From Symbiodinium sp. CCMP2592 (lineage: Eukaryota > Sar > Dinophyceae > Suessiales > Symbiodiniaceae), in assembly GCA_905221615.1 (NCBI GenBank), contig CAJNDT010001224.1, forward strand, positions 1,858,902 to 1,922,901: a stretch of DNA of 64,000 nucleotides. The letters are read 5' to 3'. The notes beneath the pieces were generated by a model, which saw only the letters and a list, made by a program, of their open reading frames with translations, did no database searches and was not told the DNA's origin. This document shows, in pieces, positions 563 to 25,721 of the stretch. The translations under genes and the position numbers were made by a program. The number at the start of each line of letters is the position of its first letter. Position 1 is the first letter of the stretch.

Positions 563-574
563 GTTTTTGTTCGG
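563..574. repeat. Left copy of 12-bp putative target-site duplication
   Basis: GTTTTTGTTCGG sits directly after the TTTAGG-like units and directly before the GC-rich 5' region of the giant element. The identical 12-mer occurs at 25722-25733, directly after a short (GAA)n tail. A direct repeat at both ends of a LINE is the expected footprint of target-primed reverse transcription. Confidence 0.7.
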
Positions 575-1034
575 AGGCGTTGTGGCTCGAGCCCGTTTCG
601 GCCCCTGTCTCCCTTAGGAGTAGGGTCCGTACCGGCATTCCCAACCCTAGCGGTTTCTGTGGACGCCGCGCTGAGATCTTCCCGTGGAGGGAAACTCCTG
701 CACCCTGCTTTTCGATAAGCGGTGCAGCTGTTGGCCTATTTGGACCTGGTTTGGGCTGGTCCCTTGGCTTTTGGTCGCTGCTATTAACTTAGCCGACACT
801 GGGAGGGCGCCCTCCCTCTTTTATTTCGGTCTCCGGACCTTATGCCCTCGAGGTCTCCGATCTGGGTTATCGCTTTTCTGGGCCTTCTGGGCATTTCTTT
901 GATTTGGTGGGGCTCCGTAACGAGCCAACATACCGCGGACGCGCAGTCCGCCCTGGCACCGCAGACTCCGCCGACAAAGGAGTGCTGCACGCGCCCGTCT
1001 TCGATCTGGACGAGGTCGGCCTCGGGACAAGGCC
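575..1034 (+). other. 5' untranslated region of the giant retrotransposon
   Basis: GC-rich sequence between the putative target-site duplication and the first ATG of ORF1 at 1035. It contains a pyrimidine-rich tract near 800-840. An internal promoter would be expected here by analogy with other LINEs, but no motif is recognised. Confidence 0.45.
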
Positions 1035-2540
1035 TTGTTGAACAATCATCACGGCAGTCGCGCTCCTATGGCGCCGAAGACTGCCCCAAAATCGGGCAAG
1101 CAGCCGGCCAAGGGCTCCGGCAAAGGTCAGGAATTCCCCTCTTCCAAGTTGGAGTTTGGATATCCTGCGGCACTGAACACGGCGCTTCAAGCTATTGGGG
1201 CCAGAGCAACCCAAGATCTTTGGCGTGGGCCCCAGCTTGGCGATGGGGATGCAACTGCCGAGCAACTCGCCCAGAGGCGGGCCAACCTGGTGTCCAAGCT
1301 GGCCAAGCGTGTGGAGGGCGATGCTCGTGCCAAGCAAGCGCTCAAGGAAGCGCTAGCGGCTTGGAGTATTTCGCTCGGCAACCACCTCGAACAGCTCCTC
1401 ACTCGCGTCCGTGCTCTCAGCCACAAACTCGACGAGGACCTCGTCGAAGCGTGCGGGGAGCTCGAAGCCCAGACCAGGGATGTGGCTTCCTCCTCTACGG
1501 ACGACAGGATCGCGGCTGCCAAGGCATCGCTCGGGCCTGCTTGGAATGTCATACAAGAAGCCGAGGTACTTCGGCTTGCGGCCGGTCTACGTGCCTTCGG
1601 CAGTGTGACGGCCGATGGAATGGCTGGCGGGCTGCTAACAGGACCTGCCACCAGTCATGCCCCATTCCCGGCCAGCGTCGAGGACTCCGAGATCAGTTTT
1701 GGTGGATGGATCCCAGAGCTGGTGCCACCCTCAGGGCAGGACTCCGGCGCAAGTTCGGCCAGCATCACGGGTGGTGCTCCTTCCCCCCCGGCAAGTTCAG
1801 CCTTGTTCCTTGCCGGGGATCGACCGGCCACTCGTTGGAGGAAGAGAGGCAGCGGAGCTGTGGAACGCCCCTCCAAAAGCCCCCGTCGTGGACCTGCACC
1901 GGACACCGAAGTCGGCGAGCCGTGGGTGAGGACTACAACTGGCCTTACCCCTCAGGGAGTTTCCCGCCCACGCCAAACAGCAGTGGAGGAGGACCCCGAG
2001 CTGATCCCGGACAAGGGCGCGCTGCAGGAGGCATGGTGCCGCGCTTGGATGGCTATCCTAGCGATGGTAGCGGAAAGCGGCGACGATGTTGTCGGAGAGC
2101 TCTCTGTGTGCGACGAGCAGGAGACAGCGCTACCACGGCACGAGGACGACCAATCAGTGGACAAGGTGGTTGCTGCGGCAGACGAGCTGTGGAAGTTTCT
2201 GGTGCAGGTGGTGGCTGCCCCCTCCCTGGAACAGCTGGCAGCTCTACATGCACGTCTGCTAACCTTGCTCTGCGACCTTCGAAGCTGTTCCGGTGCCCTT
2301 CCTCGCATCCGCCAGGGACTGTTGGTCGCCATCCATGCAGCGCTCGGCAGTCTGCTCGACCCGTTCAGTTACGCGCCTGGCACTCTGCAGGAATGGTTAC
2401 ACCCATCCCTTGTGGTGGAGCAGGGCTTGATCAGACAAGGATATCTGGCGACCGAGATGTCCTCCAATGCCCATGCCCAGATCCTGTGCAGAATGCCTTG
2501 TCCGTTTCCCTTGGCCACAACAACTCAGCCCAGCTCTTGA
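1035..2540 (+). CDS. ORF1 of the giant retrotransposon, gag-like, left-contig copy
   Basis: 501 codons starting at an ATG. The N-terminus is basic (APKTAPKSGKQPAKGSGKG), followed by a charged helical part rich in Ala, Leu, Glu and Lys that looks like coiled coil (about residues 60-190), a Pro/Ser/Gly-rich middle, and a second helical part. No CCHC knuckle was seen. The composition is protein-like, whereas the overlapping open frame that starts at 842 is rich in Cys, Trp and Ser here and looks like a shadow. By position it is the ORF1 or nucleic-acid-binding protein of the LINE; no family is recognised. It ends about 60 bp after the ORF2 frame becomes protein-like. Confidence 0.6.
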   Translation: MLNNHHGSRAPMAPKTAPKSGKQPAKGSGKGQEFPSSKLEFGYPAALNTALQAIGARATQDLWRGPQLGDGDATAEQLAQRRANLVSKLAKRVEGDARAKQALKEALAAWSISLGNHLEQLLTRVRALSHKLDEDLVEACGELEAQTRDVASSSTDDRIAAAKASLGPAWNVIQEAEVLRLAAGLRAFGSVTADGMAGGLLTGPATSHAPFPASVEDSEISFGGWIPELVPPSGQDSGASSASITGGAPSPPASSALFLAGDRPATRWRKRGSGAVERPSKSPRRGPAPDTEVGEPWVRTTTGLTPQGVSRPRQTAVEEDPELIPDKGALQEAWCRAWMAILAMVAESGDDVVGELSVCDEQETALPRHEDDQSVDKVVAAADELWKFLVQVVAAPSLEQLAALHARLLTLLCDLRSCSGALPRIRQGLLVAIHAALGSLLDPFSYAPGTLQEWLHPSLVVEQGLIRQGYLATEMSSNAHAQILCRMPCPFPLATTTQPSS

Positions 2541-5500
2541 GCGATGGAGTCTCTGTTGACATCGACCCTGCTAGTCGCGATCTTGGGGGATACGTTTGCT
2601 CGTATCTCCCATGGATCGCGGCTAGCCTTTTCCTCGGGCGATGTCTGATTCTGTACATAGCTCTGTGCAGAGTTGTAGCGGTTTCAGGGAGGTTTATTTC
2701 GGCATATGGTCCCCGCCTTTCTTGGCGCCGAGCGTGGCAGCTTGGCTGTGTTCTCTCAGCAACCGCTTGGTGGGTTGCTGCAGCAATCGGACCGCCTGCC
2801 TCCATGATGCTGTGTGCCATAATCAGCGAGCTCCTGGCTGGCCTTCCTGGACTTGCCTTGGACTTTGGCTCTGCCCTAAGTTCGGCCACTCAGCACTGTG
2901 TTCGAGTCCTCCCTGCCATCGTTTCTGGACTTGCTGGCGTGTGGGACCGTTGCTGGACTTGGCTCCGCGGCAACGGGCACTCTGATGGCGACGGTGAGCT
3001 GACATGGCCTTTCCTCTCTTTCTGGCATTCCCCTTTCGCCTTGTGTGGATGTGCTATGCCGGCTGGGGCCCGCTCTGCCGGTCGCAAGGTAAGTGGGGTG
3101 CGGTACTGTGCGAAAGTGCGACCACGGGGGTCCTGTGGCCCTAACTTCCATGTGACCTTGCTCCTGCTCTACCTCTCGGTTGCTGACGGAGCTACTCTCC
3201 GTCTGGGTGCTGCTGTCCTTTCCTCTTACCTTGTGCAGCCCCCCGAAGCAGTGCAGTTGCATGCGCATGGTTTCCATGAAGGCCTCCCTGTTCTCAGCAC
3301 AGGTCCTGTCCTTCCCACTCCCAGTGCTGATGAGATGTGTGACGTCTATCCAGTTGGCCGGACTGGTAACTTGCTGTTACCACGTACTGACCGTAGCCGC
3401 AGGCATCTCGCTGTGTTTGTGGGGACACCTCCTGGAGCGCCTGTCCTCGACCCATGTCCCATTCCCTTTCTGGTTGATGAATGGCTGCATGGGCCGCTGC
3501 TTCATGCTAGGTTAGCCGCCGCTCTTGGTTTCCCTACTGGGGTCTTCGCTGTATCTGGGGTCCGCGGAGTTCTTCCTGGGTTGCCGAGTGAACAGCTTCT
3601 CCTCACGCCAGCTACTTGTTCATGGCGGCAAGTGTGGCTGCCCGTCGATTTGCGACAGCTTGGTGGCCGAGTGTGTATGATACAGTGTCCTCGTGACTCC
3701 ACATGCAGGGCAATCGCTCAACTCGCCCTTGCTGCTCAATCCCTGACGGCGGAGGTTGACCTTCTTCTTGCTCGTTGCACGTGGGGCTGGTTGACCCTTG
3801 CCTCCCAGCCTCTCTTCTTGCAAGATGTTGACACGCTGCAGTTTCAGATCGGTCCGGCTGTCGAGGCTCTTCAGGGTCCTGTCGGATCGTCCCTTGATCC
3901 TCCCCTGTCTCTCTTTTCTGCGATGCAGGTGAGCCTCCCTACTGCTCCGGCCGCCTACGACGCCTTTCCGGGTCACTCGCATAACCAGGCCGTTCTAATC
4001 ACACCCAATGGGTTAGTATACGTTGAAGCCCCGGTTTTTGCTGACGCCGCGACCTTCCGACGCATCGTGTCTACGCGGGCTTCCCCTGCCGCTACTGGTG
4101 GCGTTTTGCGGATCTGGCACCCACTTCCCTCGCTCCCTCTTGTCCAGTTTCTTGAGGTTCATTGTGCTGAGGGGGAGGTGCCGTGCATTTTGGATTTCCG
4201 TCCTGTGGGCTGGAGGCTGACTACTGTCTGCATCTCGCCCCCTGTCACTGCGCTCTCCGCTGTCACCGCAGCTTCACGTCGGGATCGCAGCAGTCTTCCC
4301 CACGAATGGGTAGATCAGTGTGCCAGGGGTGGCTTCGGTCTTCTTCACAGGGAATTTTCTGTGCTTCCGGATCAGGTCATTTCAGGGAGCTTTCCGTTGG
4401 TTATCATGTTCTTCCCGCATGTTTTTCGCCAGGACTCCTCGTCTTCCTCGGAGGACCAGGTCGGCGGGTGGGACACTCCAGGTACTTCGGATACCATTTC
4501 CGCCCTTCAGCACACCTTGTTGCCTTCACCCGCGAGATCTTCCGCTCCCGCCAGTATACCTGCCTGCACCGGAGTTACACCCTCTGCTTTCCTTAATTCT
4601 TCGGTCCCTCGCGCTGCTGAGCACATTGAGGAGCCGGCTTCGGACACGTCTGCTGCTGCCCGCATTTTGCGAAGGCCCTGGGTAATCCTTCCTGTCTTGG
4701 GGGTCTTAGGTGGGCACGCCGGAAAGCAACCTGGACTTGGCACGTTGAGTGTTGCGTGCTTCCTGCTGCACCTTTCCCCTGTTGCAGCGGTTCAAATCCA
4801 CAGTGAACCTGCATCGCCACGTGATGCTGTTCTTTCTGCTGCCAGAGCTCCAGACCGCCAGATTGCTGCTCCTGCTGGAGCCCACTCTCACCTGCAGTCC
4901 AAGTGGCTCCTGACTGGTGACTTCGGTGATGGTCCTCTTTGGTTGTCGCTTCCGTCACCTGACTCGGTCTTCCTTATAACTTGCCGTCTTTGGCTGCCGG
5001 GCTCCGATGTGCGCCTTGAGTTTTCTAGCACCGATCGGGCCCGTGATGTGTCTGCGGAGCTGTACCGCCAAGCCATTCGACTTGGACGATCTCAGATTGT
5101 TGCGGCGTCGGTCGGGCTTACGCTTGAAGCTGTTCACCTTGTGTCCCTGCCATCGCACCCGGAAGCAATTACGGTCCTTTTTGATCTAGGCAGGGAGGTT
5201 GTTTGCAGCGAACTTCCGTTCGACTATAGTCCGAATCAGGTTATTACTGCCGCTCAGGAAGCAGCCTCTAGCAGTGACATCCAAATCTTGAAGGGCCTGG
5301 CACACAGACTTCGCCACGGTGATGTCATTCGGGTGATTGTTAACTCCGAGCAACGTACGCTTGATGTCTCGGCGTTCACTCTCCCGCCTCATGTCACCTC
5401 TGCCTCTCGGTGGCTTCGGGAGTCGAGGGTGGTGTCCTTCCTTCATTCTGTCGAAGGGGTGCTCTCTTTCGAGGTTCCGAGGTCGTACGCCCTTGACATC

Positions 5501-5999
5501 ACCGTGCTGAGTACCCTCCTGCATAGTGTCATCCCTGGCCGTCATGTCTTTGTTGAGATCCCTGGGGCGGATGCTCTCCCACATGCAGCGTTCTGTGTTG
5601 CTCGTCCGGGCCAAGACTGTGTTACTTATCGCCTGACTGATGCCTCTGATCCTTCCGCTGCAGGCCTTTTTCTTGCCTTTGCAGGCGTGTTCGAGTCCTT
5701 CCCTGTCTTTCTCGACAGCCTTCTTTACAGCAATCGCCCTGCAGCTGTCTTGCTACGTCGGTTGCAGCCTTTTGGCTTGTCGGTGTTGTCTTGGGAATGT
5801 ACCGTTATCCCCGGCCGAGGGGATTGTCACTATTGGCATGTTCATGTCCAGGCTGACCTTGCAAGGGCTCGCGACTACCTACTTCATTTGCATTGGGAGC
5901 CTAGGATTGTTCGTAGTCCCCCGCCCCTGCCGCCGCCTCGGGTTCGAGTCTCTCATAGTGTTGGGGTTCAGACTAACGCTCCCTTTATCTCCGCTAGCA
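2480..5999 (+). CDS. ORF2 of the giant retrotransposon, left-contig copy, cut by the gap
   Basis: Open frame in the -1 phase relative to ORF1. It becomes protein-like from about 2480 and stays open to the N run. Its content is the same as described for 7735-11487. There is no obvious start codon at the junction, so it would be reached by frameshifting, by splicing, or through an indel. Both contigs show the same phase change, which argues against a random base-calling error in one of them. Confidence 0.55.
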
Positions 6000-6099
6000 N
6001 NNNNNNNNNNNNNNNNNNNNNNNNNNNNNNNNNNNNNNNNNNNNNNNNNNNNNNNNNNNNNNNNNNNNNNNNNNNNNNNNNNNNNNNNNNNNNNNNNNN
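6000..6099. other. Scaffold gap of 100 N
   Basis: Exactly 100 N, a common placeholder for a gap of unknown size. It joins two contigs that overlap by at least 5,155 bp, so the true gap is probably negative. Any reading frame crossing it is artificial. Confidence 0.98.
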
Positions 6100-9000
6100 C
6101 CCTCGAGGTCTCCGATCTGGGTTATCGCTTTTCTGGGCCTTCTGGGCATTTCTTTGATTTGGTGGGGCTCCGTAACGAGCCAACATACCGCGGACGCGCA
6201 GTCCGCCCTGGCACCGCAGACTCCGCCGACAAAGGAGTGCTGCACGCGCCCGTCTTCGATCTGGACGAGGTCGGCCTCGGGACAAGGCCTTGTTGAACAA
6301 TCATCACGGCAGTCGCGCTCCTATGGCGCCGAAGACTGCCCCAAAATCGGGCAAGCAGCCGGCCAAGGGCTCCGGCAAAGGTCAGGAATTCCCCTCTTCC
6401 AAGTTGGAGTTTGGATATCCTGCGGCACTGAACACGGCGCTTCAAGCTATTGGGGCCAGAGCAACCCAAGATCTTTGGCGTGGGCCCCAGCTTGGCGATG
6501 GGGATGCAACTGCCGAGCAACTCGCCCAGAGGCGGGCCAACCTGGTGTCCAAGCTGGCCAAGCGTGTGGAGGGCGATGCTCGTGCCAAGCAAGCGCTCAA
6601 GGAAGCGCTAGCGGCTTGGAGTATTTCGCTCGGCAACCACCTCGAACAGCTCCTCACTCGCGTCCGTGCTCTCAGCCACAAACTCGACGAGGACCTCGTC
6701 GAAGCGTGCGGGGAGCTCGAAGCCCAGACCAGGGATGTGGCTTCCTCCTCTACGGACGACAGGATCGCGGCTGCCAAGGCATCGCTCGGGCCTGCTTGGA
6801 ATGTCATACAAGAAGCCGAGGTACTTCGGCTTGCGGCCGGTCTACGTGCCTTCGGCAGTGTGACGGCCGATGGAATGGCTGGCGGGCTGCTAACAGGACC
6901 TGCCACCAGTCATGCCCCATTCCCGGCCAGCGTCGAGGACTCCGAGATCAGTTTTGGTGGATGGATCCCAGAGCTGGTGCCACCCTCAGGGCAGGACTCC
7001 GGCGCAAGTTCGGCCAGCATCACGGGTGGTGCTCCTTCCCCCCCGGCAAGTTCAGCCTTGTTCCTTGCCGGGGATCGACCGGCCACTCGTTGGAGGAAGA
7101 GAGGCAGCGGAGCTGTGGAACGCCCCTCCAAAAGCCCCCGTCGTGGACCTGCACCGGACACCGAAGTCGGCGAGCCGTGGGTGAGGACTACAACTGGCCT
7201 TACCCCTCAGGGAGTTTCCCGCCCACGCCAAACAGCAGTGGAGGAGGACCCCGAGCTGATCCCGGACAAGGGCGCGCTGCAGGAGGCATGGTGCCGCGCT
7301 TGGATGGCTATCCTAGCGATGGTAGCGGAAAGCGGCGACGATGTTGTCGGAGAGCTCTCTGTGTGCGACGAGCAGGAGACAGCGCTACCACGGCACGAGG
7401 ACGACCAATCAGTGGACAAGGTGGTTGCTGCGGCAGACGAGCTGTGGAAGTTTCTGGTGCAGGTGGTGGCTGCCCCCTCCCTGGAACAGCTGGCAGCTCT
7501 ACATGCACGTCTGCTAACCTTGCTCTGCGACCTTCGAAGCTGTTCCGGTGCCCTTCCTCGCATCCGCCAGGGACTGTTGGTCGCCATCCATGCAGCGCTC
7601 GGCAGTCTGCTCGACCCGTTCAGTTACGCGCCTGGCACTCTGCAGGAATGGTTACACCCATCCCTTGTGGTGGAGCAGGGCTTGATCAGACAAGGATATC
7701 TGGCGACCGAGATGTCCTCCAATGCCCATGCCCAGATCCTGTGCAGAATGCCTTGTCCGTTCCCCTTGGCCACAACAACTCAGCCCAGCTCGTGAGCGAT
7801 GGAGTCTCTGTTGACATCGACCCTGCTAGTCGCGATCTTGGGGGCTACGTTTGTTCGTATCTCCCATGGATCGCGGCTAGCCTTTTCCTCGGGCGATGTC
7901 TGATTCTGTACATAGCTCTGTGCAGAGTTGTAGCGGTTTCAGGGAGGTTTATTTCGGCATATGGTCCCCGCCTTTCTTGGCGCCGAGCGTGGCAGCTTGG
8001 CTGTGTTCTCTCAGCAACCGCTTGGTGGGTTGCTGCAGCAATCGGACCGCCTGCCTCCATGATGCTGTGTGCCATAATCAGCGAGCTCCTGGCTGGCCTT
8101 CCTGGACTTGCCTTGGACTTTGGCTCTGCCCTAAGTTCGGCCACTCAGCACTGTGTTCGAGTCCTCCCTGCCATCGTTTCTGGACTTGCTGGCGTGTGGG
8201 ACCGTTGCTGGACTTGGCTCCGCGGCAACGGGCACTCTGATGGCGACGGTGAGCTGACATGGCCTTTCCTCTCTTTCTGGCATTCCCCTTTCGCCTTGTG
8301 TGGATGTGCTATGCCGGCTGGGGCCCGCTCTGCCGGTCGCAAGGTAAGTGGGGTGCGGTACTGTGCGAAAGTGCGACCACGGGGGTCCTGTGGCCCTAAC
8401 TTCCATGTGACCTTGCTCCTGCTCTACCTCTCGGTTGCTGACGGAGCTACTCTCCGTCTGGGTGCTGCTGTCCTTTCCTCTTACCTTGTGCAGCCCCCCG
8501 AAGCAGTGCAGTTGCATGCGCATGGTTTCCATGAAGGCCTCCCTGTTCTCAGCACAGGTCCTGTCCTTCCCACTCCCAGTGCTGATGAGATGTGTGACGT
8601 CTATCCAGTTGGCCGGACTGGTAACTTGCTGTTACCACGTACTGACCGTAGCCGCAGGCATCTCGCTGTGTTTGTGGGGACACCTCCTGGAGCGCCTGTC
8701 CTCGACCCATGTCCCATTCCCTTTCTGGTTGATGAATGGCTGCATGGGCCGCTGCTTCATGCTAGGTTAGCCGCCGCTCTTGGTTTCCCTACTGGGGTCT
8801 TCGCTGTATCTGGGGTCCGCGGAGTTCTTCCTGGGTTGCCGAGTGAACAGCTTCTCCTCACGCCAGCTACTTGTTCATGGCGGCAAGTGTGGCTGCCCGT
8901 CGATTTGCGACAGCTTGGTGGCCGAGTGTGTATGATACAGTGTCCTCGTGACTCCACATGCAGGGCAATCGCTCAACTCGCCCTTGCTGCTCAATCCCTG

Positions 9001-17400: not shown

Positions 17401-19857
17401 AGACCCTAACAGGTTCCTGGGTACCAGTCCTTACAGGCGACCTTTCGGACCTTCATCTAATGTCCCGCACCTCAATTTCTGAAGCGCATGTGCTCTTCCT
17501 TCTGCCGCCAGAGCAGACACCGGTGGGGGTCTTCCTAGCTGGCTGCAACACCCACCGCATTCCCTTGGGCTGGCAACTGTTACCTGCCATCCGTTATGTG
17601 CGTGCTGGTAGCACGCTGAGGGACGGGGACGTCTTGGTTATCGCCCCGACTGCTGATCTTGTTTGGGACCCTTTCAGTATCCGGCCTCCCAGTTTAGATG
17701 ATGTGCAGCCGCAGAGTGCCCAGCACACTTGGCATCAATCTCTGACCTCTGCCTCGCCCGGCCCTACGGCTCTGCTAGGCTTTCTCGCGGTTTCGGTTGG
17801 TCGCGCTCCATGGTGGTTAGGGCTTGCCCTCGGGGTTGTGCTAGGGTCTGGCATGGTGCCATCTTACGAGCTCCCCGATCCGCCCATCCGAGTCGGGCTG
17901 TACCCATGGCGCGCGCGTCCTGGTGAGGGCGACCTCCTCGATCTTTCGGTCCGCCCTGAATTGGATGTTGTTCTGCTTAGTCCTTTCACAGGGCCTCGGG
18001 AGGCCGGTCGTCTGTACACCTCCGCTGCCATTACGGAGCTTCACACCTTGACGCAGGCCTGTGAGCCGGCATGGGGTGCGGATGCTGTGCCTGTCTGGCC
18101 GACTGCCGCCCTTCCTGCCTTGTTGGTCGTTCCTCGACCCCCTGACCCCAGCCTCGTGTGTCTGGCGGTGTCCTCGTTGGACCGGCATTTCTCGGTCCTG
18201 ATTCCCTGCTCCTCCACCCTGTCATGGTTGGGGGAGGCTCTCCGTTTCCTTCAACCCCTTCAGGCGCTCTCCCTGCGGGCACCTAGCTCCTTGGCCGCGT
18301 CGACGCCCCCTGACGGCGTTATCCGATGGCGTTCAGGCGATCTTGTTGTCGCCCTGCCTCCGGCAGCCTTCGAGCCTACCTACCAGCCCCCGTGCTTCCA
18401 CACTGACGCACAGGTTCGGCATTGTGCTGTCTGGGCCGTCGACTTCTCGGTCTCTGCCCGGATAAACTTTATACTCTGGCGACCTGGGGTCCGTGCAACC
18501 CGGGGACATGCACCCGAAGGGGCACAGTGGCGGGCCCTCGACTTTACATTTGCCGGGGAATTCTGTCAGCACTATCCTGGGCGTTGGGTGCCGGTACCCT
18601 GGATTGCCCAAGATCATGCCCATTTAGTTGTGGTGTCCGAGGACCCGACATATGTCAATGTTGTCATTGAAGCTGACGGTAAGTGCTGGTGTGCACCAGT
18701 CACTGCCGTGACGGACGCCTGGCAGTTATGGACTGATGTGCCCTCAATCCCCACTCAACCACGAGTGCTGGGTCTTTCACACCAGGAACTGCGCCAAGGC
18801 ACTGTCCTCCGCAATGGTGACATTGTGTCAGGAGCGCCCAAGGTCGCCCCGCTATCGGGTGGCGTTTGGGTTCTCCTCGCTTTCTTTCTCTCTGCCCGAT
18901 TTCTACCGACTTTCCCGAGCTCCTTGGTTCTGCTTGCTGGCTTGGTTTTCGGGTGGCACCATGAGGCTGTTGGTGCCCGTCACCTTTCCATCACAGTTGG
19001 CCTCGCTGCCGCCGGGCAGGGTCACGTTAGGGCAGTTAGAATGCATGACACACCTTATCCTATAGGGGAATATCACCGCCTTTGGGAGCCCTCCGGCTCT
19101 GTGTCAGGGCCGTTTTCTGGTCCTGTTGATCGCCCGCCGGAGGAGTTGCGTCATGCTGCTGTTGCGTGGTCTGACTTTACTCAAGTCCTGCCACCTCAAG
19201 ATCCTCGCATAGTTGATTGGGTACCTGTCCCTTCGGATCCACTCTTTGTTGTTGTCTTGCTTCAGTGCCCGCCTGCGACTCGAGCAGCAATCTTGCCAGC
19301 CACCTGTCATGCTGCTGACCTTATCCGTGCATGTCGGCGGTCGGTTCCTGATTTAGCTTGTGTTTTAGCCTCGCCTGAAATCTGGTGTGGCACCGCCGCT
19401 TCCTTTACCCCAACTCTTTTCCTTCGGTCAGGGGACGTGCTGACCCTGGCATGTGCCGGCTGGGTTCCACGCCTGCGCTCTCCCAGTGGCCGCTTTTGGG
19501 ATACCTTCTATCAGGCCCGTAAATTTGCATTTTGGGGTAGCCCCTTTCAGATTCGTACGCCGGGCCTTCTGTTTGCGTGGTCGGCCGGTGATCCTGTTCC
19601 CTTGACGGTTCACACCGTTCAAAATGAAGTGTGGGACCCGGAACACTGCACATTCCGTCCCTCCTTGGCCCGGTACAGTGTCGACCGTTGGGTCCCGGCA
19701 GCCCGCTGTGATCTGCTAGGTCTCCACCTCGTTCCTGAGAGTCTTCATCCGCATCGTGCACATGTTCTGCCTATTCGGCCACCCCTTCGGTTGTTGGAGG
19801 TCTCCCGTTACAGCACGCGGGGTCTGATTCGGGATGGTGATAGCGGCTCTCTTGGTA
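10561..19857 (+). repeat. Array of RxGD strand motifs in the retrotransposon polyprotein
   Basis: Thirteen occurrences of a hydrophobic-R-x-G-D-hydrophobic motif (one is degenerate, SGAV) at about 10561, 12885, 14140, 14841, 15331, 15975, 16435, 17148, 17611, 18322, 18806, 19421 and 19825. In ORF4 they come in pairs, with a hydrophobic segment after each pair. The form LRNGDVV resembles the last strand of small beta-grasp folds (ThiS, MoaD and TGS type), but that is only a visual likeness. Confidence 0.6.
11366..14572 (+). CDS. ORF3 of the giant retrotransposon: repeated-module protein, part 2
   Basis: Open frame of 1,068 codons. Only about 11483-14510 is likely to be used, because its first 120 bp overlap the end of ORF2 and its last part overlaps ORF4. 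It has a hydrophobic segment near 11660-11740, W-P strand motifs (LHLWLPG near 11940, RIWTL near 12500), an RxGD-like motif (FPSGAVIQII, about 12885), another hydrophobic segment near 13350-13440, an acidic Ser/Pro linker (EESSDEEG near 13480) and QFRNGDCLAAG near 14140. The start of the next module (EVVLHSPF) is in this frame and its continuation is in ORF4, so the two are one protein interrupted by a +1 phase change at a run of C, T and G (14491-14512). Confidence 0.55.
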   Translation: MWPACLDSLFGPFVRGVALLACAHLFLHGRPLPKRFLSPSETFLSDSNQIWPFPRDLASVVGRCVSVGYDSPEGISQLAHNCHSPVPSPPPAPPTLVSLALGLTCPWRSLVLCLLGLLAIPVDSVQLPLEPATLVPRRSADDILHTRRDFTRPCTMSWTHELGRQTHGFAVAAPQLGAYVERTSPQYEIQLHLWLPGQGPIHLRVLARHLDLHLSAYLGAFLPDCEYGLHVAFDSNPQVLDILVTPPSPPVWWILRDSIGCELLRPVVQHFTSHCSFFFCAIEPDGVVHSVEPSAEVRHMSPSPQGARALIGRALPGLVGRFVDGVLHVVAARACSPAIFGGLTLFLLGGQSAAMHPPYSTALATVADVPPPAPTTMRIWTLNVPVPVDLPWRPQGYPTRWLRELMCRLHHIDDPGEFRSTLSSPGGTVQHVLFVPIVPTTHPTARFWLLHWGDAAVVTFGHTPFHWDVVSAHIRALFPGGPLPDRCPALSFAGQFYPPGAPLPDFPSGAVIQIIIGALARIPGDDDPWNPDPLVIDSPFFRHVPSRGPALEPAIRLDGRGNQLAAGALQHPLVDQGVQTDLSGNGTGLDHATVSRVHLLSRELSFHTSRLWAGLAEPDAEPVGDSPSVLRLSSQSNCAAASAPNVDLLDIGGTSGSHKLALPSPVSWFLVGALLGLRGVAFRSVLALATVSEGSIIFPPPDCSAEESSDEEGPPPVQAENMSDASGAPVPFTTPAGPPPPEPVNAPFQPRLRYLRAARPLEGYALGLWPSTLDREPAADEDVIRRVQADLLGLQRGLRTFAAAIPLGTPFCIHNPFTARQQCDIVEYSAGPELNPFVLFQGHARSRGWAGIVLLMPQPDATAVHLIGCPQAPGNVAVGVVIDGRLIPCCLPACVACEALRELHLDGQAYDLRPPEVHEETAVVQFRNGDCLAAGRRPSRQPPSQRDVQAATAETLGRDTDAATSAPGTTSAAVRAAWLWLGLVVTSARSPGVAPAMLALCLWHAEVLGMHRPGGFPWGTDPVNRRFSGITSEDPVEVVLHSPFLGGFSALYSLPGHLPHSGLGPVSQ

Positions 19858-22800
19858 GCAGCGCTCCCTCCCCCCGTCTTATGCTGTGCCTTGTTGGCCT
19901 TCTGCTGGCGCGGAATGCATTGCCGCTCTGGCCCAGTGGAGGAGCTCTCCTTTTTGCAGGGGCCTCGTTTGGGGCGTTTCCCTTCAGTGACACCCTTGTC
20001 TTACCGACTGTTTCTCCTGTTGCGATGCCGGTTTCTGCCCAGAATCTTCGGGTGGTGTCGCCCAGGTGGCCGCCGATTGCGCCAAGCCGGGGTTCTTTTA
20101 CCGTTGTCGGGGGACCTCGCCGTGGAGGAGCGCTGCCCTTTTGGCTTGCTGCCCCTGAGCCAGCTGTGAGGCCTGTTGCCCGGACTGCTCCTGTTCCACC
20201 GGCATGGTCCGCGTCCTTGCTTGACTGTTATGGCCGTGCGTGGGGAGCGCCGGCTGATGACCGCGACTTCGCCGGTTCTCCCGCGACTCCTGCGACTCAT
20301 TGTCTCGATTTGCAGGACGCCGGGTATCATTATGCCGGCTTTGCCGCACATTATCTGTTTAAGCCCCTTCTCACCGACCTTCCTTCGTCACTGGCTTCCC
20401 TGCTCCATCAGGGATGGGGCCGGTTTCCCCGTTGGCCAGGCGGTGTTCCGGACGAAGTGTTCATTGCCACTGATGGTAGTGGGTTAGGCAAGGGTGGTTG
20501 GGCCCTAGCTGTGTGGGTCTCGTGGAAGGGCAATTGGTACCGCCTCGGCTGGGACGCCGGCAGCCTCGCATCTACACCGTGGCTTCCCTCGTTTCCTGCA
20601 ACCCATCTCGACCTTCGTTCTTACCTGGGGGAGCTGAGCGCTTTAGTGTCTGCTGCCGCATGGTTTACGGTGTGGTGGGACAACATGCAGCTCCTGACCG
20701 GGAACGCGCCCGCCAGGATTACCTTAGCTGTTGACAACAGTGCAGCGCTTCAAGTCGCAGGGGGCCATGCTTCGGCGACAACGCCGCATGCCCGTGTCTG
20801 CCGGGCTCTGTGGCAGTCGATCCAGTCCCGATGTTCGACGCACTTCAGGCATGTGCCAGGCCATACTGGCAACCTCGTCAATGAAATTGCCGATGCCTTG
20901 GCGGGGTACGGCACTGCTCATGACTGTTGTGCGTCTGTCGGGTGGTGCCGTCTGCCGACTACATTTGGGGACTCACTTTTAGAGTGTGCCCCGCTCATGT
21001 GGCTCTTGCCGCAAGCTTGCCTGCAAGAAGGCCGGTTGTGTTGGCGCTCACCGGGATGGGTTGATTGCCCCCGCACGTCCATTCAAGAGCCCCCGCAGAT
21101 ACAGCCGCAGGTGCGGCAAGATGACGAGCAGGTCAAGCCTCTTCGTACCACTGTCACTCTTGTGCAAGCCAACATCCAGACAATTAAAGATGTTGATGTG
21201 TCCTTCTTCAATAGGGATGGACACGGACAGCGCCGCATCTACCTCGCTAAACAGCTTCGAGCTCTGGGGGTTCATATTGCCTTTCTTCAAGAGTGCCGCA
21301 GCCGCCCGGGCCGGTGGTCCTCCCACGGCTTTCTCAGCTTCCGTTCGGGAGCCGAGAAAGGGCTGTTCGGGGTCGAAATTTGGATCCGCCCCGACCTGCT
21401 GCACCCTGCTTTGAGTCTGGATGACTTCCGCATCCGTTTTGCCAGCCCGAAAATTCTGTTAGTGCAGTGTCAACGTGCTGAGCTCCCGGTTACTCTGGTT
21501 GCAGCCCATGCACCTCATGCTGAGAGGCCGGACGCTGAGATTCGGCGGTTTTGGCATGATCTCAAGACGCAACTTCTTCCTGCCTGCAATCGCGGTACTG
21601 TTCTGTTAGGTATTGATGCCAATGCTGACTTTACGGGCCGTGATGAGGAAGAGACCCTCGTTGGCGACCTTCTTAATCTCCGCCCAGCCAGGCTTGGTGA
21701 CGATCTCCTTCTTGCCTGTGCTCATGACACGGCGCTGGCTGCCCCTGGCACTTGGTCTGAGGTCTGCACTGGACCCACTTGGACCTGGCAGCACACAGGC
21801 GGGAAGACCCAACGCTTGGACCACCTGCTTATTACCCATGGCACTCGGGTCTCTCAGTATCGCCAATTTCCTGAATTTGACATCTTGAATGGCGAAGCCA
21901 GGGATCATATGCCCATTGTCATTACTGTTGACGTTTCCGGGAAGTCCGCAGGTAAAATGCATCCGCGCTGTCCCTACTCGGCTGACTCTGGTGCCGCTGT
22001 CGCTGAAGCTGTCTGGGACGCGCTTCACCAGTCCACACCTGGTAGTAGTGCGGAGAGAGTTCAGCAACTTTGTGCTGCCCACGCCCGTGCGATCCGCTGC
22101 CTTCCTGCCCGGCCCCCTCTTCAAAAACGGCAACCTTACCTGTCCGAAGTTGCTGCCGGCCTTCTTGACACTCTTCGTGATGCACGGGCCGAGGTTAGGC
22201 GGCTTCGCACCCTCTATCACCGGCAACTCTGTTTGGTTGCCTTTCGGACATGGTGCCGCCGCCGAGTTGAGTCCCCAGCCCTCCCCTGGGAACTTCATCA
22301 GGTTCGCATGATGATGGCGCATTTTGCACACGTTTGTTTCCGGCTTCGAGCTCAGGCTCATGCACAGGCACGGCTTGATAAGCAGGCCTACTTCGAATCC
22401 ATGCTCCTCGGCGCAGTCGATCACTGGCATGCCACCGGGCGCCCTCTCGAGGCGGTGGCCAAGCTGTCTTGGGCGTCCAAAGGTGCCAAGCAAAAACGTG
22501 ATGTTAGGGCCGCAAGTGGGTTTGACATCGATGAGCAACTCCAGCTACAATTCCAGCAGCAGGAAGATGGCCGCCCGGTGTCGGATGCCCAATTGAGTGC
22601 GGCCTTTTCTCTTTGGGCTGCTGAACCGCGTGGCGTTTGTCTTTCGGCCTTACCCACCCTTCTTGATGTTGAACACATGTGTCGACTCCAGCGCCGAGGC
22701 AAGGCCCCTGGCCCGGATCACATTCGTAATGAGGTCTGGCGAACCCACCCCGATCGCGCCGGCCGATGGTTGTGGCCTATGTGGGTTCACCTCGCTTGGG

Positions 22801-24149
22801 GCGAGGCCGAGCCACTTCACTTTAAAGCTTCTACTGTGGGAGCTCTCCACAAAAAAGGCCCAGCTCACATTCCCGCCAACTTCCGGTCCATTGCCATGCT
22901 GAACGGAGTGGCTAAGTTGTGGCACTCCCAACTTCGGGCCACCCTGGGTCAGGAAGTTATTGCTCACTACTTTCCGACCCAGCTCGGGGGTAGGCGAGGC
23001 GTGGACACGGGCCTTGCCCTCACTGTCTTCCGCTCTGCTGTCGACTTGGCTTCCGTTCATGGCCGGTCCTGGGCTGCCTTGTTTGTCGATATTCAGGCCG
23101 CATATTATGAGGCAGACCGAACCTTGCTTTTCCACGGTCGTGACCTTGAACCAGCTCTTGCGGGCCTGCAGCTGCCTCGTCATGTTCATGGCCTGATTCA
23201 GGATGGCGTCCTAGCGGGTCTCGGGGTTCCCGCTGACCAGATTGCTCTCCTGCGTGACTGCGTTGAATGCTCGTACTGGCGCCTTGTCGGCCAGCACCAA
23301 GCTATTATGGCAGGTCGAGGGTCCCGGCCCGGGGACGGACTGGCCGATGTCCTGTTCGGAGCCTTGTTCGCAGTGATTTTACAGTGCCTCCATTTTGCGC
23401 TCAAGGCTGAAGCAATTGTTCATGCCGCTTCCTCTGATGCCCTTGGCCGACCTGATGCGTCCCTTCAAATCGCATGGGCTGATGACCTTTGCCTGCTTGT
23501 TGATTTCATCCGAGCCACTTGGGCTGTCTCGAAGTTGCGTCGCCTTTGCACTATTGTTCTCCAAGTTTTCGAAGCCTTTCGGTTCCGCGTCAACCTTGGA
23601 GCAGGTAAGACCGAAGCGCTCGTTCACCTGCAAGGAGCGCTTCTTGCCCTCAGTGATGGTAGAGGCATTAGGGTAGTCCCTGAATATAAGTACCTCGGGG
23701 TTGTGCAGCGCTGCCGTGACACTGGTCGACGGGATGTCGAGGCCGCCGCCGCGCGTGGCAACTCTATCTGGACTCAAGCCTCTGGACTTGTCCATTCTGA
23801 GAAGTTGCCGTGGATGCTCAAGTCCGTATGGCTGCAGGGAAGGACTCTCCCTGCAGCGTACTCCTCCCTTGCCACGACTTTGGCTCGTTCTGACCGAGCT
23901 TGGGGACCCCTGAATGGTTTCTACGACAAATGCCTTCGCCAGCTCGTTGGGTCTTGGGATGCTGGGCACCATGTGGCCTCAGTCCAACTGCGAGCCTGTA
24001 CAGGGGTTCTTGATGTTGAATGTGCTACGGTTATCGCTCGTGTGCGCCTGCTCTGCCGCATTGCCTCGGGCCGTTCACCTGAGGTCTTTGAATTGTTCCA
24101 GGCCAGCTGGGATCGCGGCGGGGAATGGTCTTCCCTCCTTGCTTGCTGA
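14406..24149 (+). CDS. ORF4 of the giant retrotransposon: five modules, then RNase H, endonuclease and reverse transcriptase
   Basis: 3,247 open codons. From about 14510 to 19950 there are five units of roughly 350-450 residues. Each has two RxGD strand motifs, W-x-P-V signatures (WTPVQW, WVPVPW, WVPVLT) and a hydrophobic segment at its end. RNase H (20450-20930): ATDGSG, GELSAL, VDNSAAL and VPGHTGNLVNEIADAL supply the D-E-D-D residues. Endonuclease (21150-21950): QANI, LQE, GIDANADF, RLDHLL and DHMPI. Reverse transcriptase (about 22690-23720): KAPGPD, FVDIQAAYYEADR (motif A, Asp codon 23088), SRPGDGLAD (motif B), WADDL (motif C, 23475-23489) and VNLGAGKTEAL. RNase H lies before the endonuclease, unlike the usual LINE order. 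It ends at a TGA, and the C-terminal part continues in ORF5 after a +1 shift near 24140. Confidence 0.85.
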   Translation: MASLGVLIRLTGGSLALRVRTRLKLSCIAPFWGVFPPFTASQDTCHTQAWAQFRNDDPGWAADYFPVWPGPAFNELSVVPVGHDPALVTIMLVWGGHHRATLTPRTMTVAWLTSFVARHINSEVGGLSLPHGLAVCEYFDIPPAAFRFRNGDVVYIHDPPADPDEPLEFVEPWHLQDGLAAHHAPWAVGFQLMFPISVHLLRPAKPPLLTSIPAGESWCPEAFSFSGDFRHQFPGFWTPVQWTSARALQLMAVNEVAAKVNVVAATPEGRLCRSVDRVVSRASLAAQLRFCPATVQVGGIPPYALEQACELRNGDVVFGEFARGGCATASCRLGLWLGTALAFSQLPVARQFLLVLAVGLFYGGHPVSFGASALLFMTPAAAMIPQAPATSVATPDIPAATVNRVTLTLANPFAPWQRVEVDPSHAFEEIIADAHHTLTSWHRGFVESGLVADGSHVLVPRPGGRLTCILVTGLGQLLCVVVPSFLTPRDLTQALQLRFGRRVSVHLSPGLAASTRDTRPVLALRSGDLIAVRLFQSDPSAGPRETPVFLTWGAAHAASAWHSDFIVAHASCVLLWSPSRPARVALLRHQARWNAAEATVCQHEDALGVYRWAPCHGHLGTPPWLVEQATAFGRVNIIQPRGSTRCVEIDRGAAHDLYVHGFSLRPASSQATEEASVRDGDWWVHSLAAGLFGRRFPALARLLLLVYGFSGPAWAVSSGSSDRCSSVDSSEARTIRTRMPPRRSRSRGQDSSHRYFPARVDFSSGEPYVLQAGWQPDCTDGQLCFDRCFPGPRPLTTRVLCPLRGWSEFHFARLEGPWSLFEAVGSRHCGAWATRFFPVRGAFPFAQVTLAPVAPFGMASVVFHTLSGTAVALASVDASLEDIQRLAARLIPCTRFWVVIPPPSIRAANMHTHIRLRNGDAFGFLPDSSQPGSTRFPALHYPSLDRARQVASWSLSFRFDTGGPVTLWTTSNRFGQLVYVRDNAYWDPLGPTFRSLGGETLTGSWVPVLTGDLSDLHLMSRTSISEAHVLFLLPPEQTPVGVFLAGCNTHRIPLGWQLLPAIRYVRAGSTLRDGDVLVIAPTADLVWDPFSIRPPSLDDVQPQSAQHTWHQSLTSASPGPTALLGFLAVSVGRAPWWLGLALGVVLGSGMVPSYELPDPPIRVGLYPWRARPGEGDLLDLSVRPELDVVLLSPFTGPREAGRLYTSAAITELHTLTQACEPAWGADAVPVWPTAALPALLVVPRPPDPSLVCLAVSSLDRHFSVLIPCSSTLSWLGEALRFLQPLQALSLRAPSSLAASTPPDGVIRWRSGDLVVALPPAAFEPTYQPPCFHTDAQVRHCAVWAVDFSVSARINFILWRPGVRATRGHAPEGAQWRALDFTFAGEFCQHYPGRWVPVPWIAQDHAHLVVVSEDPTYVNVVIEADGKCWCAPVTAVTDAWQLWTDVPSIPTQPRVLGLSHQELRQGTVLRNGDIVSGAPKVAPLSGGVWVLLAFFLSARFLPTFPSSLVLLAGLVFGWHHEAVGARHLSITVGLAAAGQGHVRAVRMHDTPYPIGEYHRLWEPSGSVSGPFSGPVDRPPEELRHAAVAWSDFTQVLPPQDPRIVDWVPVPSDPLFVVVLLQCPPATRAAILPATCHAADLIRACRRSVPDLACVLASPEIWCGTAASFTPTLFLRSGDVLTLACAGWVPRLRSPSGRFWDTFYQARKFAFWGSPFQIRTPGLLFAWSAGDPVPLTVHTVQNEVWDPEHCTFRPSLARYSVDRWVPAARCDLLGLHLVPESLHPHRAHVLPIRPPLRLLEVSRYSTRGLIRDGDSGSLGSSAPSPRLMLCLVGLLLARNALPLWPSGGALLFAGASFGAFPFSDTLVLPTVSPVAMPVSAQNLRVVSPRWPPIAPSRGSFTVVGGPRRGGALPFWLAAPEPAVRPVARTAPVPPAWSASLLDCYGRAWGAPADDRDFAGSPATPATHCLDLQDAGYHYAGFAAHYLFKPLLTDLPSSLASLLHQGWGRFPRWPGGVPDEVFIATDGSGLGKGGWALAVWVSWKGNWYRLGWDAGSLASTPWLPSFPATHLDLRSYLGELSALVSAAAWFTVWWDNMQLLTGNAPARITLAVDNSAALQVAGGHASATTPHARVCRALWQSIQSRCSTHFRHVPGHTGNLVNEIADALAGYGTAHDCCASVGWCRLPTTFGDSLLECAPLMWLLPQACLQEGRLCWRSPGWVDCPRTSIQEPPQIQPQVRQDDEQVKPLRTTVTLVQANIQTIKDVDVSFFNRDGHGQRRIYLAKQLRALGVHIAFLQECRSRPGRWSSHGFLSFRSGAEKGLFGVEIWIRPDLLHPALSLDDFRIRFASPKILLVQCQRAELPVTLVAAHAPHAERPDAEIRRFWHDLKTQLLPACNRGTVLLGIDANADFTGRDEEETLVGDLLNLRPARLGDDLLLACAHDTALAAPGTWSEVCTGPTWTWQHTGGKTQRLDHLLITHGTRVSQYRQFPEFDILNGEARDHMPIVITVDVSGKSAGKMHPRCPYSADSGAAVAEAVWDALHQSTPGSSAERVQQLCAAHARAIRCLPARPPLQKRQPYLSEVAAGLLDTLRDARAEVRRLRTLYHRQLCLVAFRTWCRRRVESPALPWELHQVRMMMAHFAHVCFRLRAQAHAQARLDKQAYFESMLLGAVDHWHATGRPLEAVAKLSWASKGAKQKRDVRAASGFDIDEQLQLQFQQQEDGRPVSDAQLSAAFSLWAAEPRGVCLSALPTLLDVEHMCRLQRRGKAPGPDHIRNEVWRTHPDRAGRWLWPMWVHLAWGEAEPLHFKASTVGALHKKGPAHIPANFRSIAMLNGVAKLWHSQLRATLGQEVIAHYFPTQLGGRRGVDTGLALTVFRSAVDLASVHGRSWAALFVDIQAAYYEADRTLLFHGRDLEPALAGLQLPRHVHGLIQDGVLAGLGVPADQIALLRDCVECSYWRLVGQHQAIMAGRGSRPGDGLADVLFGALFAVILQCLHFALKAEAIVHAASSDALGRPDASLQIAWADDLCLLVDFIRATWAVSKLRRLCTIVLQVFEAFRFRVNLGAGKTEALVHLQGALLALSDGRGIRVVPEYKYLGVVQRCRDTGRRDVEAAAARGNSIWTQASGLVHSEKLPWMLKSVWLQGRTLPAAYSSLATTLARSDRAWGPLNGFYDKCLRQLVGSWDAGHHVASVQLRACTGVLDVECATVIARVRLLCRIASGRSPEVFELFQASWDRGGEWSSLLAC

Positions 24150-25551
24150 CGCGGTGCGGCGTGTTTGGCCGGCCTGTGGCCTACCGGCACTCCAGACAGG
24201 CGAGCCTACCCTTCTCTGTGTGCGCCGGCATACCAAAGAGATCCTCTCGGCCTGTCGCCGGATCAGTCGGTCCGGCACTATGCTGTTGGCTCTCCATCGG
24301 GCGTGGAGAAGTCATGGCGGTCCGCCGCCCAAGCGGGTGATTGGTCTCGCGTCCCCTCACATTTGCCCGGAGTGTGGTGTGACTCTCCCTTCGGCGCATG
24401 CCCTAGCGGCACATGCCCATCGACTTCATGGGCGCGTTGCTCTGTGCACCCAGTACACGTTGGGGACGACCTGTCTGTGGTGTATGGTCGAATTCCATAA
24501 TGCTGCACGTCTCCGGTACCATCTTTTGCACTCACCGAGCTGCGAGCACGGGCTTCGGTGCTGTGTTGGCCCTGTCTATGAGTATGGTACAGGCACCAAA
24601 CGCCGCGGCAAACAGGGCCATGCCAGGGCCCCGGTTTTCCGTGTTGCAGGCCCGTGTAATGCTACCGCGGCACAGCGTCGTGCCGCCGAGGAGGGGCGTT
24701 GCTGCACGGATGAGGAGCTCGCTGCTGAGTTACGCACTATCGCCCCTGGTCCGGGCTTCTCCGAGGGCACTCGCTCCTCTCCTGTTGTGCCCTTTCGCCG
24801 TGCTGGTGGTTGCTCTACTCTTCCCCCTGGCGAAGAGGCTAGCACGATCTCGTGCCCTGAGGTCTTGCGCTCACCACATGCTCCTGTTGCTTCCCCCACC
24901 GGAGCTTTTGACTTTGGTTCACCCACCACCTCGGTTCGGCTCCCTTCCGATGACACCGCGGCTGCTTCTGCTTGGTACCAGTCGCATCCAACGGAAGGGT
25001 TCTGCACTGTCTATTGTTTCGACGAGGCCCCTGGCGCCTCGTCGTTCTGCGCCCCCTCTTGCCGGTGGTGTGCGGTGCCTCCAGCCATCTGGTGTCTCCC
25101 GCCATCGTGGGCGCGGTGCTGGAAACTCTTTCTTGCCCTTGAGTCGCTTCACCCGTGGGCAGCTGAGACTTGGAGACTATCTGCCTTTCTGCGTCAGGAG
25201 GAACGCCCCTCTCCAAGCGCCGCACTCGGATGCCTGACATGCTTTGAGCAGATCGCGGCACAGCGGATCCTTTTCCTGCGGCGACTGCTCACCTGTCTCC
25301 ACTTGCTTCGTCAGATTTATAAGGCTGGGGCTGCTCTGTGGTGCGCTGTTCCCCTGCCTGGCGCCTTCTGGGAACTTCTGCGCCGTGTCGTACCTCACGC
25401 TGTGGGTACATCGGCTGTCGCCGTGCTTGGTTTTGGCACTGTCGTTAGCCTCCCTGCGGTCGCCCCGCGGGCTCTTTCCTCTCTTGCTTCGGGCTGGCTC
25501 TCTTTGGCCTCTCCCCGTCGCTTGGCGATGCCGCACCAGCTTCCCTTGTAG
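23914..25551 (+). CDS. ORF5 of the giant retrotransposon: C-terminal zinc-finger part
   Basis: Open for 545 codons, with only about 24120-25551 likely to be used. It continues the post-RT region: a helical stretch, then a C2H2 finger (CPECG...HAHRLH, 24358-24429) and a second C2H2/C2HC-like finger (CLWC...HLLHSPSC, 24466-24540). A long variable part follows, ending with a helical, Trp- and Leu-rich segment at about 25090-25410. Fingers after the RT are known in several LINE clades and are thought to bind template RNA or target DNA. The join to ORF4 needs one extra base to be skipped in CTTGCTTGCTGA. The Cys-rich stretch near 25010-25080 could hide another phase change. Confidence 0.6.
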   Translation: MVSTTNAFASSLGLGMLGTMWPQSNCEPVQGFLMLNVLRLSLVCACSAALPRAVHLRSLNCSRPAGIAAGNGLPSLLADAVRRVWPACGLPALQTGEPTLLCVRRHTKEILSACRRISRSGTMLLALHRAWRSHGGPPPKRVIGLASPHICPECGVTLPSAHALAAHAHRLHGRVALCTQYTLGTTCLWCMVEFHNAARLRYHLLHSPSCEHGLRCCVGPVYEYGTGTKRRGKQGHARAPVFRVAGPCNATAAQRRAAEEGRCCTDEELAAELRTIAPGPGFSEGTRSSPVVPFRRAGGCSTLPPGEEASTISCPEVLRSPHAPVASPTGAFDFGSPTTSVRLPSDDTAAASAWYQSHPTEGFCTVYCFDEAPGASSFCAPSCRWCAVPPAIWCLPPSWARCWKLFLALESLHPWAAETWRLSAFLRQEERPSPSAALGCLTCFEQIAAQRILFLRRLLTCLHLLRQIYKAGAALWCAVPLPGAFWELLRRVVPHAVGTSAVAVLGFGTVVSLPAVAPRALSSLASGWLSLASPRRLAMPHQLPL

Positions 25552-25721
25552 TTTTGCGGTCCGAGCCCTTACGCCTGAGGCGTTGGTCTCGCTCCGCCGT
25601 CTTTTCGCTTTGCATGTAGGGCTGTAAGTTCCCGCTTTTCCAGGACCGCGGCCTCGCCGCTTTTCGGTCCGTCTCTTTTCTTGCACAGGACTAGAACCTT
25701 CTACGCAACGAAGAAGAAGAA
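25552..25721 (+). other. 3' untranslated region and (GAA)n tail of the giant retrotransposon
   Basis: Short GC-rich region after the ORF5 stop, ending in four GAA units at 25709-25721 just before the right copy of the 12-bp repeat. No poly-A tract is present. Short microsatellite tails are found in several LINE clades. Confidence 0.55.

What the first reader, a model, noticed from the sequence alone, without database searches (positions are those of the whole stretch)
575..25721. A retrotransposon of about 20 kb with a very long modular polyprotein before the RT
Seen: ORF1, then roughly 4,000 codons of repeated modules, then RNase H, endonuclease, RT and zinc fingers, all on one strand with overlapping ends, between a 12-bp direct repeat. 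LINEs usually have one ORF1 and one EN-RT ORF within 4-8 kb. A modular, partly hydrophobic cargo of this size upstream of the RT is not part of any LINE clade I know. This may be a new giant lineage.
Basis: partly seen in the sequence, partly recalled or inferred. Interest (0 to 1): 0.88.

Follow-up and report, generated by a model that had tools for sequence, protein, structure and literature searches.

The report
Giant ubiquitin-like-chain LINE in Symbiodinium
A coral-symbiont alga carries a 20,000-letter jumping gene that inserts at a telomere-like DNA sequence and carries, in front of its copying enzyme, a huge conserved chain of domains that probably fold like ubiquitin, an arrangement I have not seen described.

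Summary
The window is from Symbiodinium sp. CCMP2592. Bases 845-5999 and 6100-11254 are overlapping contig ends across an N gap, so the element is 19.9 kb, not 25 kb. It is a LINE: ORF1, a modular region, RNase H, AP-type endonuclease, RT, zinc finger. The overlaps inside ORF2 are frame changes of this copy; another copy keeps 6,517 codons open.

It probably moves like an ordinary LINE, by TPRT (inferred). The role of the ubiquitin-like chain is unproven. New variant of a known kind.

The parts
550..562 (+). Target motif TTTAGGATTTAGG directly left of the TSD
   Evidence: At most 1 mismatch in 7 of 7 copies with both ends; 0 exact and 21 with <=1 mismatch among 83,972 background 13-mers; consensus read from the same 7 copies
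563..574 (+). Left target-site duplication GTTTTTGTTCGG
575..844 (+). 5' UTR start of the element (left contig only)
   Evidence: 270-base search: 15 matches in the genome, 14 of which begin at query base 1
845..5999 (+). Left contig end, duplicate of 6100-11254 (assembly overlap; not a second copy)
   Evidence: 6 mismatches in 5,155 bp, then N gap
6000..6099 (.). Assembly gap (100 N)
6323..7795 (+). ORF1 (490 aa; duplicate at 1068-2540)
   Evidence: dN/dS 0.10 in this frame, 5.15 in the overlapping ORF2 frame, 6 pairs
7648..11487 (+). ORF2, first frame block; ATG 7648 inside ORF1 is a candidate start; unit-X domain at about 10339-10587
   Evidence: start is inferred
11360..14572 (+). ORF2, second frame block: modelled stretch 11747-12994 and unit-X domain at about 13901-14164
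14391..24149 (+). ORF2, third frame block, 3,252 aa: five X+Y supermodules, RNase H, EN, RT
14490..19880 (+). Five supermodules (unit X + unit Y + hydrophobic linker); dN/dS 0.15
17838..18875 (+). Supermodule 4, modelled: pLDDT 90.6, pTM 0.88; probable chain of ubiquitin-like domains
20418..20930 (+). RNase H domain, upstream of EN
21153..21890 (+). AP-type endonuclease (Exo_endo_phos)
22488..23705 (+). Reverse transcriptase (FVDIQAAYY, RGSRPGD, WADDL in this copy)
23914..25551 (+). ORF2, last frame block: C-terminal region with C2H2-type zinc finger
   Evidence: Pfam zf-C2H2 0.39 in this copy; relatives continuous across the junction; A4 profile matches zinc fingers
25552..25721 (+). 3' UTR with (GAA)n tail, no poly(A)
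25722..25733 (+). Right target-site duplication

Best explanation
A full-length, autonomous-type non-LTR retrotransposon of about 19.9 kb from Symbiodinium (this copy is frameshifted). Shown by sequence: two ORFs under purifying selection; ORF2 (about 5,980 aa in another copy if it starts at the candidate ATG) carries a long array of modules, separated by hydrophobic linkers, then RNase H, AP-type EN, RT and zinc finger; insertion leaves duplications of about 12 bp next to TTTAGGATTTAGG. Predicted: the modules have a ubiquitin-like (beta-grasp) fold. Inferred: EN cuts the bottom strand in telomere-like repeats of that variant, the freed end primes reverse transcription from the RNA's (GAA)n 3' end (TPRT), and RNase H clears the template. 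ORF2 is reached by re-initiation or frameshifting at the end of ORF1. Most likely, though weakly supported, the ubiquitin-like chain works as a scaffold that docks the particle on host ubiquitin/UBL-binding factors or membranes, and the polyprotein is cut in the linkers so that the C-terminal EN-RT is released.
For: TSDs and target motif 7 of 7; 3' flanks telomere-like in the first 30 nt 19 of 24 versus 6.9% of background windows (8.0%); fixed 5' end 14 of 15; open frame of 6,517 codons; dN/dS ORF1 0.10, module regions 0.11-0.16, RH-EN-RT 0.05; EN, RT, RNase H; linear tetra-ubiquitin as best PDB match of both models; modules in 47 of 47 of P0006-P0052, of which 40 of 47 also hold the RT box ADDL (the search query held modules, so the 47 of 47 is partly by construction); hydrophobic Y-to-X linkers 44 of 97 versus 0 of 133 X-to-Y and 4 of 240 control windows.
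Confidence: 0.85

Rival explanations
1. The modules are a separate host gene family or a nested/captured sequence into which a normal LINE inserted, and the long frame is chance read-through.
For: The EN-RT core exists without modules in distant relatives; 26 of 59 scored module hits had no scored RT hit next to them and 18 of these were not followed up; P0130-P0133 hold modules and no RT.
Against: TSDs flank modules and RT together in 7 of 7 copies; one frame runs through both; 7 of 8 unpaired module hits that were fetched have RT at the expected place; modules lie upstream of the RT in gene models at 25-98% identity.
Confidence: 0.05
2. The ubiquitin-like chain is a decoy or mimic that binds host ubiquitin/SUMO machinery to protect or route the RNP, rather than a structural scaffold.
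For: Predicted ubiquitin fold; another LINE in the same window has a ubiquitin C-terminal hydrolase domain at the end of its RT frame.
Against: No binding data; no check of surface residues; no Pfam ubiquitin match at E <= 1 in 23 of 23 scanned members.
Confidence: 0.3
3. The hydrophobic linkers are signal/anchor segments and the polyprotein enters the secretory pathway, giving a membrane-bound, virus-like replication or export stage.
For: Hydrophobic linkers lie between supermodules, often followed by small residues and Met (54 of 83 linkers have a Met there).
Against: Met enrichment is modest (0.0179 versus 0.0105); no signal-peptide program was run; the EN-RT must reach the nucleus.
Confidence: 0.15
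4. Assembly artefact: a chimera of unrelated contigs.
For: A real artefact exists at 845-11254, and N gaps occur in the fetched stretches of C2112, C5172, C5273 and C5329.
Against: The stretch on C1779 runs 22,000 bases without N and aligns with the right contig over 19.7 kb at 97.4%.
Confidence: 0.01

Closest known systems
SART1 / TRAS1 telomere-repeat-specific LINEs of silkworm (PMC7265360, passages seen)
   Same: LINE with its own endonuclease that inserts at a fixed place in telomere-type repeats
   Different: They use (TTAGG)n and SART1 needs a poly(A) tail for accurate insertion; here the site is TTTAGGATTTAGG in interstitial telomere-like DNA, the tail is (GAA)n, and the element is about three times longer (their length of about 7 kb is recalled)
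SymbioLINE-Dnmt of Symbiodinium (PMC5890265, passages and one section seen)
   Same: Symbiodinium LINE with extra protein cargo upstream of the RT, TSDs, no poly(A)
   Different: Cargo there is a cytosine methyltransferase in an ORF upstream; no such Pfam match here, and the cargo here is within ORF2
LINEs with RNase H (I, Dualen and others; recalled)
   Same: EN, RT and RNase H in one protein
   Different: There RNase H follows the RT (recalled); here it precedes the EN
R2 and LINE-1 ORF2p
   Same: Best-scoring named LINE RTs of the PDB by profile
   Different: No modules; R2 has a different endonuclease (recalled)
Linear polyubiquitin, USP7 UBL domains, OASL/ISG15
   Same: Best structural matches of the module models
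   Different: No sequence match to a ubiquitin family in Pfam; identity about 10% in the structural alignments

Membership tests
Non-LTR retrotransposon (LINE, AP-endonuclease type) | AP-type endonuclease with catalytic residues | tested here: met
   PF03372 2.7e-9; N, QE, D-N and DH positions among the invariant columns of the 8-row alignment (their catalytic role is recalled)
Non-LTR retrotransposon (LINE, AP-endonuclease type) | LINE-type RT | tested here: met
   Invariant RT columns; profile matches R2 and L1 ORF2p; Pfam RVT_1 not reported for this copy and in 1 of 8 rows at 0.018
Non-LTR retrotransposon (LINE, AP-endonuclease type) | No LTRs; target-site duplications | tested here: met
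   Direct repeats of 20 nt or more in 1-30000: only the contig overlap and a 24-nt tandem repeat outside the element; TSD 7 of 7
Non-LTR retrotransposon (LINE, AP-endonuclease type) | ORF1 upstream of ORF2 | tested here: met
   dN/dS 0.10 in the ORF1 frame
SART/TRAS telomere-specific LINEs (R1 clade) | Fixed insertion point in telomere-type repeat | tested here: met
   7 of 7 next to TTTAGGATTTAGG; interstitial, variant repeat
SART/TRAS telomere-specific LINEs (R1 clade) | RT falls in the R1 clade | not tested
   No reference set of LINE RTs at hand
SART/TRAS telomere-specific LINEs (R1 clade) | Poly(A) 3' tail (SART1) | tested here: not met
   GAA-type tail in the 24 of 25 3' ends where a tail was recognised
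SymbioLINE-Dnmt | DNA methyltransferase encoded upstream of the RT | tested here: not met
   No methylase among Pfam matches at E <= 1 for the frames scanned
Ubiquitin-like (beta-grasp) domains | Beta-grasp fold | tested here: met
Ubiquitin-like (beta-grasp) domains | Sequence match to a known ubiquitin family | tested here: not met
   No ubiquitin family at E <= 1 in 23 of 23 members
Ubiquitin-like (beta-grasp) domains | Conjugation through a C-terminal Gly-Gly | not tested
   No test run

The most novel reading that the evidence does not exclude
A distinct lineage of giant, sequence-specific LINEs in which a polyprotein of some 20 to 40 ubiquitin-like domains with hydrophobic linkers forms a host-interacting or membrane-bound assembly needed for transposition. 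The module block is exchanged between lineages as a cassette, which would make it a LINE with a virus-like polyprotein strategy.
Probability: 0.35. Interest if true: 0.95.

Novelty: new variant of a known kind. Interest (0 to 1): 0.86.

Why it matters
A 20-kb LINE whose largest part is a conserved, probably ubiquitin-like chain shows that target-primed retrotransposons can carry a polyprotein of viral or giant-gene size and still copy it full length, which makes processivity and the need for accessory domains testable. Its insertion next to a defined telomere-like sequence adds a site-specific LINE in an alga. PMC8045281 (passages) describes Symbiodinium LINEs as largely divergent remnants but also infers enhanced retrotransposition in S. 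tridacnidorum, and PMC5890265 (passages) reports some young, active LINE lineages. The copies here, 97.0-97.8% identical in DNA over their long alignments, one with 6,517 open codons, give such a lineage a concrete shape.

Tried and rejected
Two copies in the window (845-5999 and 6100-11254): rejected as a contig overlap. Overlapping ORFs as a translation strategy: rejected for the three junctions inside ORF2; still open between ORF1 and ORF2. ORF2 starting upstream of ORF1 in the open frame: rejected, dN/dS 5.15 there versus 0.10 in the ORF1 frame. Separate ORF2 at RNase H: not supported, short relatives start at scattered positions. dN/dS against the 76-79% copies: not usable; synonymous sites saturated, and four of the five loci (L016, L017, L019, L020) were apparently read on the wrong strand in my script. 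Module profile in PDB by sequence: best E 0.041, not used. EN-RT single sequences in PDB: no match. BFVD: no match at E <= 0.001. DinoSL motif in the window: no match. Rfam: no match. VIA-align's rows cover mainly one stretch of each model (103-181 and 314-393), so the fold of the other parts rests on Foldseek's full-length alignment, homology of units X and Y and secondary-structure order. In one search the printed 0 for D154-D1314 and D317-D1474 is probably a cut-off 100.0 in my parser. In one search the C5273 5' flank is marked False by a slip of my script; the printed flank holds TTTAGGG. In one search one of eight fetched loci (L063, C879) had no RT. In one search, two bins after the ORF1 stop (copy bases 3055 and 3175) show no clear coding frame. 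The target consensus was read from the same 7 copies that it is scored on, and where repeats blur the TSD edge I chose the edge.

Literature: ten searches (open-licence PMC only; only part of the matching papers was listed). Nothing in the listings that I saw describes this element.
Full report
What is in the window. The host is the assembly of Symbiodinium sp. CCMP2592: the window is G000:C1224:1858902-1922901 of a 1.098-Gb assembly, and contig lengths in that assembly (C646 1,233,160; C5329 1,444,356) equal those of the CCMP2592 proteins P0008 and P0006. PMC8045281 (passages) names CCMP2592 as S. tridacnidorum. The left 26 kb has 57-60% GC against 46-56% beyond it (2-kb windows).

Assembly correction. 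A 100-N gap lies at 6000-6099, and 845-5999 equals 6100-11254 with 6 mismatches in 5,155 bp. These are two overlapping contig ends. The element is therefore 575-844 plus 6100-25721, 19,892 bp. N gaps also lie in the fetched stretches of C2112, C5172, C5273 and C5329, on C5273 outside the element, so copy counts in this assembly are rough.

Ends and target. GTTTTTGTTCGG stands at 563-574 and 25722-25733. I fetched both ends of seven copies (window, C1779 twice, C5273, C4962, C5321, C2224). All seven have a shared stretch of 12-15 bp at the junctions; in C5321 and the first C1779 copy the repeats blur its edge. All seven have TTTAGGATTTAGG with at most one mismatch directly left of the duplication. 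In 42 kb of background on both strands there were 0 exact and 21 matches with at most one mismatch among 83,972 13-mers, and none of 19 background TTTAGGNTTYAGG had A at the middle position. This motif was read from the same seven copies. Of 24 usable 3' flanks (25 examined; L054 was dropped because no tail was recognised), 19 hold a TTTAGGG-type hexamer in the first 30 nt, against 6.9% of windows and 8.0% of 8,365 30-mers; 5 do not, this copy among them; 0 of 24 have it in reverse orientation within 60 nt. The first 270 bases had 15 matches in the genome, 14 of which begin at base 1, so the 5' end is fixed. The 3' end carries (GAA)n, not poly(A).

Coding. The relatives examined at the three junctions inside ORF2 (7, 10 and 9 gene models) read continuously there, so the overlaps are frame changes of this copy. 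The copy on C1779 keeps 6,517 codons open; gene models alone could hide introns, this frame does not. Among six copies, dN/dS is 0.10 for ORF1 in its own frame and 5.15 in the overlapping frame (6 pairs), 0.20 for the first kilobase after ORF1 (10 pairs), and, with 15 pairs each, 0.11, 0.16 and 0.15 for the following module regions, 0.05 for RNase H-EN-RT and 0.24 for the zinc-finger end. Pairs are not independent. The synonymous excess moves to the ORF2 frame in the bins right after the ORF1 stop, though two later bins are unclear. An ATG in the ORF2 frame lies inside ORF1 at window 7648; the next is at 8059. If it is the start, ORF2 has about 5,980 codons in C1779 (my arithmetic). Frameshifting or re-initiation is inferred.

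Enzymes. Pfam finds the endonuclease (2.7e-9) and RNase H (0.01; 0.0018 in the shorter piece) but reports no RVT_1 in this copy. An eight-row alignment with close and distant relatives keeps RT and EN positions invariant; its profile matches R2 (1.1e-8), LINE-1 ORF2p (1e-6), an exodeoxyribonuclease (2e-4) and an RNase H (1e-3) in the PDB. RNase H lies before EN, also in the distant relative P0127.

Modules. Twelve units ending in R-x-G-D were compared as profiles. Two types, X and Y, alternate in the 3,252-aa frame with a period of about 380 aa; within type the probabilities are 96-100 (two printed 0, see Tried and rejected), and all unit-versus-control pairs gave 0-1 except one at 4. HMMs find 10 units in this frame and one each in the two earlier frames. 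Of the 128 proteins of the three searches, 47 of 47 in P0006-P0052 have at least one unit, but the query held modules, so this is partly by construction; 40 of these 47 also hold the RT box ADDL. 0 of 9 in P0053-P0061 have a unit. Of P0062-P0129, found with the enzyme part alone and limited in length by the search, 4 of 68 have a unit and 64 do not; most of them begin at or after the RNase H. P0130-P0133, found with modules, have units and no ADDL. Linkers from Y to X are hydrophobic (44 of 97 at 1.6 or more on the Kyte-Doolittle scale; X to Y 0 of 133; control windows 4 of 240). Pfam lists only single-member matches at E 0.02-0.15 for the modules, none a ubiquitin family.

Do modules travel with the RT? 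Of 40 scored RT hits in the genome, 30 have a module hit within 3.2 kb upstream on the same strand; 10 do not, and of these 9 have open frames of 1,958 aa or more, longer than RNase H-EN-RT-zinc finger alone. Of 26 unpaired module hits, 8 were fetched at the expected RT position and 7 of 8 have RT at 44-51% identity; 18 were not followed up. Only the best candidates were scored, 40 of 1,566 and 59 of 481.

Mosaic evolution. Relative to the window, P0013, P0016, P0017 and P0021 have 70-72% identity in supermodule 4 and 50-52% in RT, while P0018, P0019, P0020 and P0025 have 43-45% and 60-65%. The trees disagree in the same way: the supermodule-4 tree joins the window group with the P0013 group against the rest (92/99, just short of the tool's strong mark), the RT tree joins the window group with the P0018 group (100/99, strong). 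Long branches were flagged in both. The simplest reading is that module block and enzyme block have been exchanged between lineages.

Known context. Telomere-specific LINEs SART1 and TRAS1 insert into (TTAGG)n (PMC7265360, passages). Dinoflagellate telomeres are (TTTAGGG)n (PMC11453091, passages). SymbioLINE-Dnmt shows that Symbiodinium LINEs can carry cargo (PMC5890265, passages and one section), and TRAS elements can carry helicases (PMC6338049, passages). Nothing in the listings of ten literature searches describes this element.

Verdict. What is added: one long polyprotein, probably ubiquitin-like modules under purifying selection, a specific target, and likely block exchange. The function of the modules is the open question.

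Noticed in passing
57273-61936, - strand: Another LINE with endonuclease (2.1e-4), RT (1.8e-8), zinc-finger-like matches and a ubiquitin hydrolase domain (UCH 2.4e-8) at the end of the RT frame
   Followed up: partly
27601-34234: Several degenerate TTTAGGG / CCCTAAA arrays in ordinary sequence, far from a contig end
   Followed up: partly
G000 C2112 and C5172 copies: Element sequence partly repeated across an N gap, the same contig-overlap artefact as in the window
   Followed up: partly
L035 (C2112 copy), first 1.1 kb: The 5' region differs from the window copy and holds a repeated segment; the rest is 97.6% identical, so the 5' UTR seems to have been exchanged
   Followed up: no
P0053-P0061, P0126-P0129: Distant relatives with RNaseH-EN-RT similarity but no module match; several have over 1,000 aa of other sequence upstream
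   Followed up: partly
C1779 copy, bases 2575-2695 (window about 7633-7753): No difference among the copies in the 120 bases where ORF1 and the candidate ORF2 start overlap
   Followed up: no
53768-54020 and 54770-55114: Two minisatellites with units of about 44 and 31 bp
   Followed up: no
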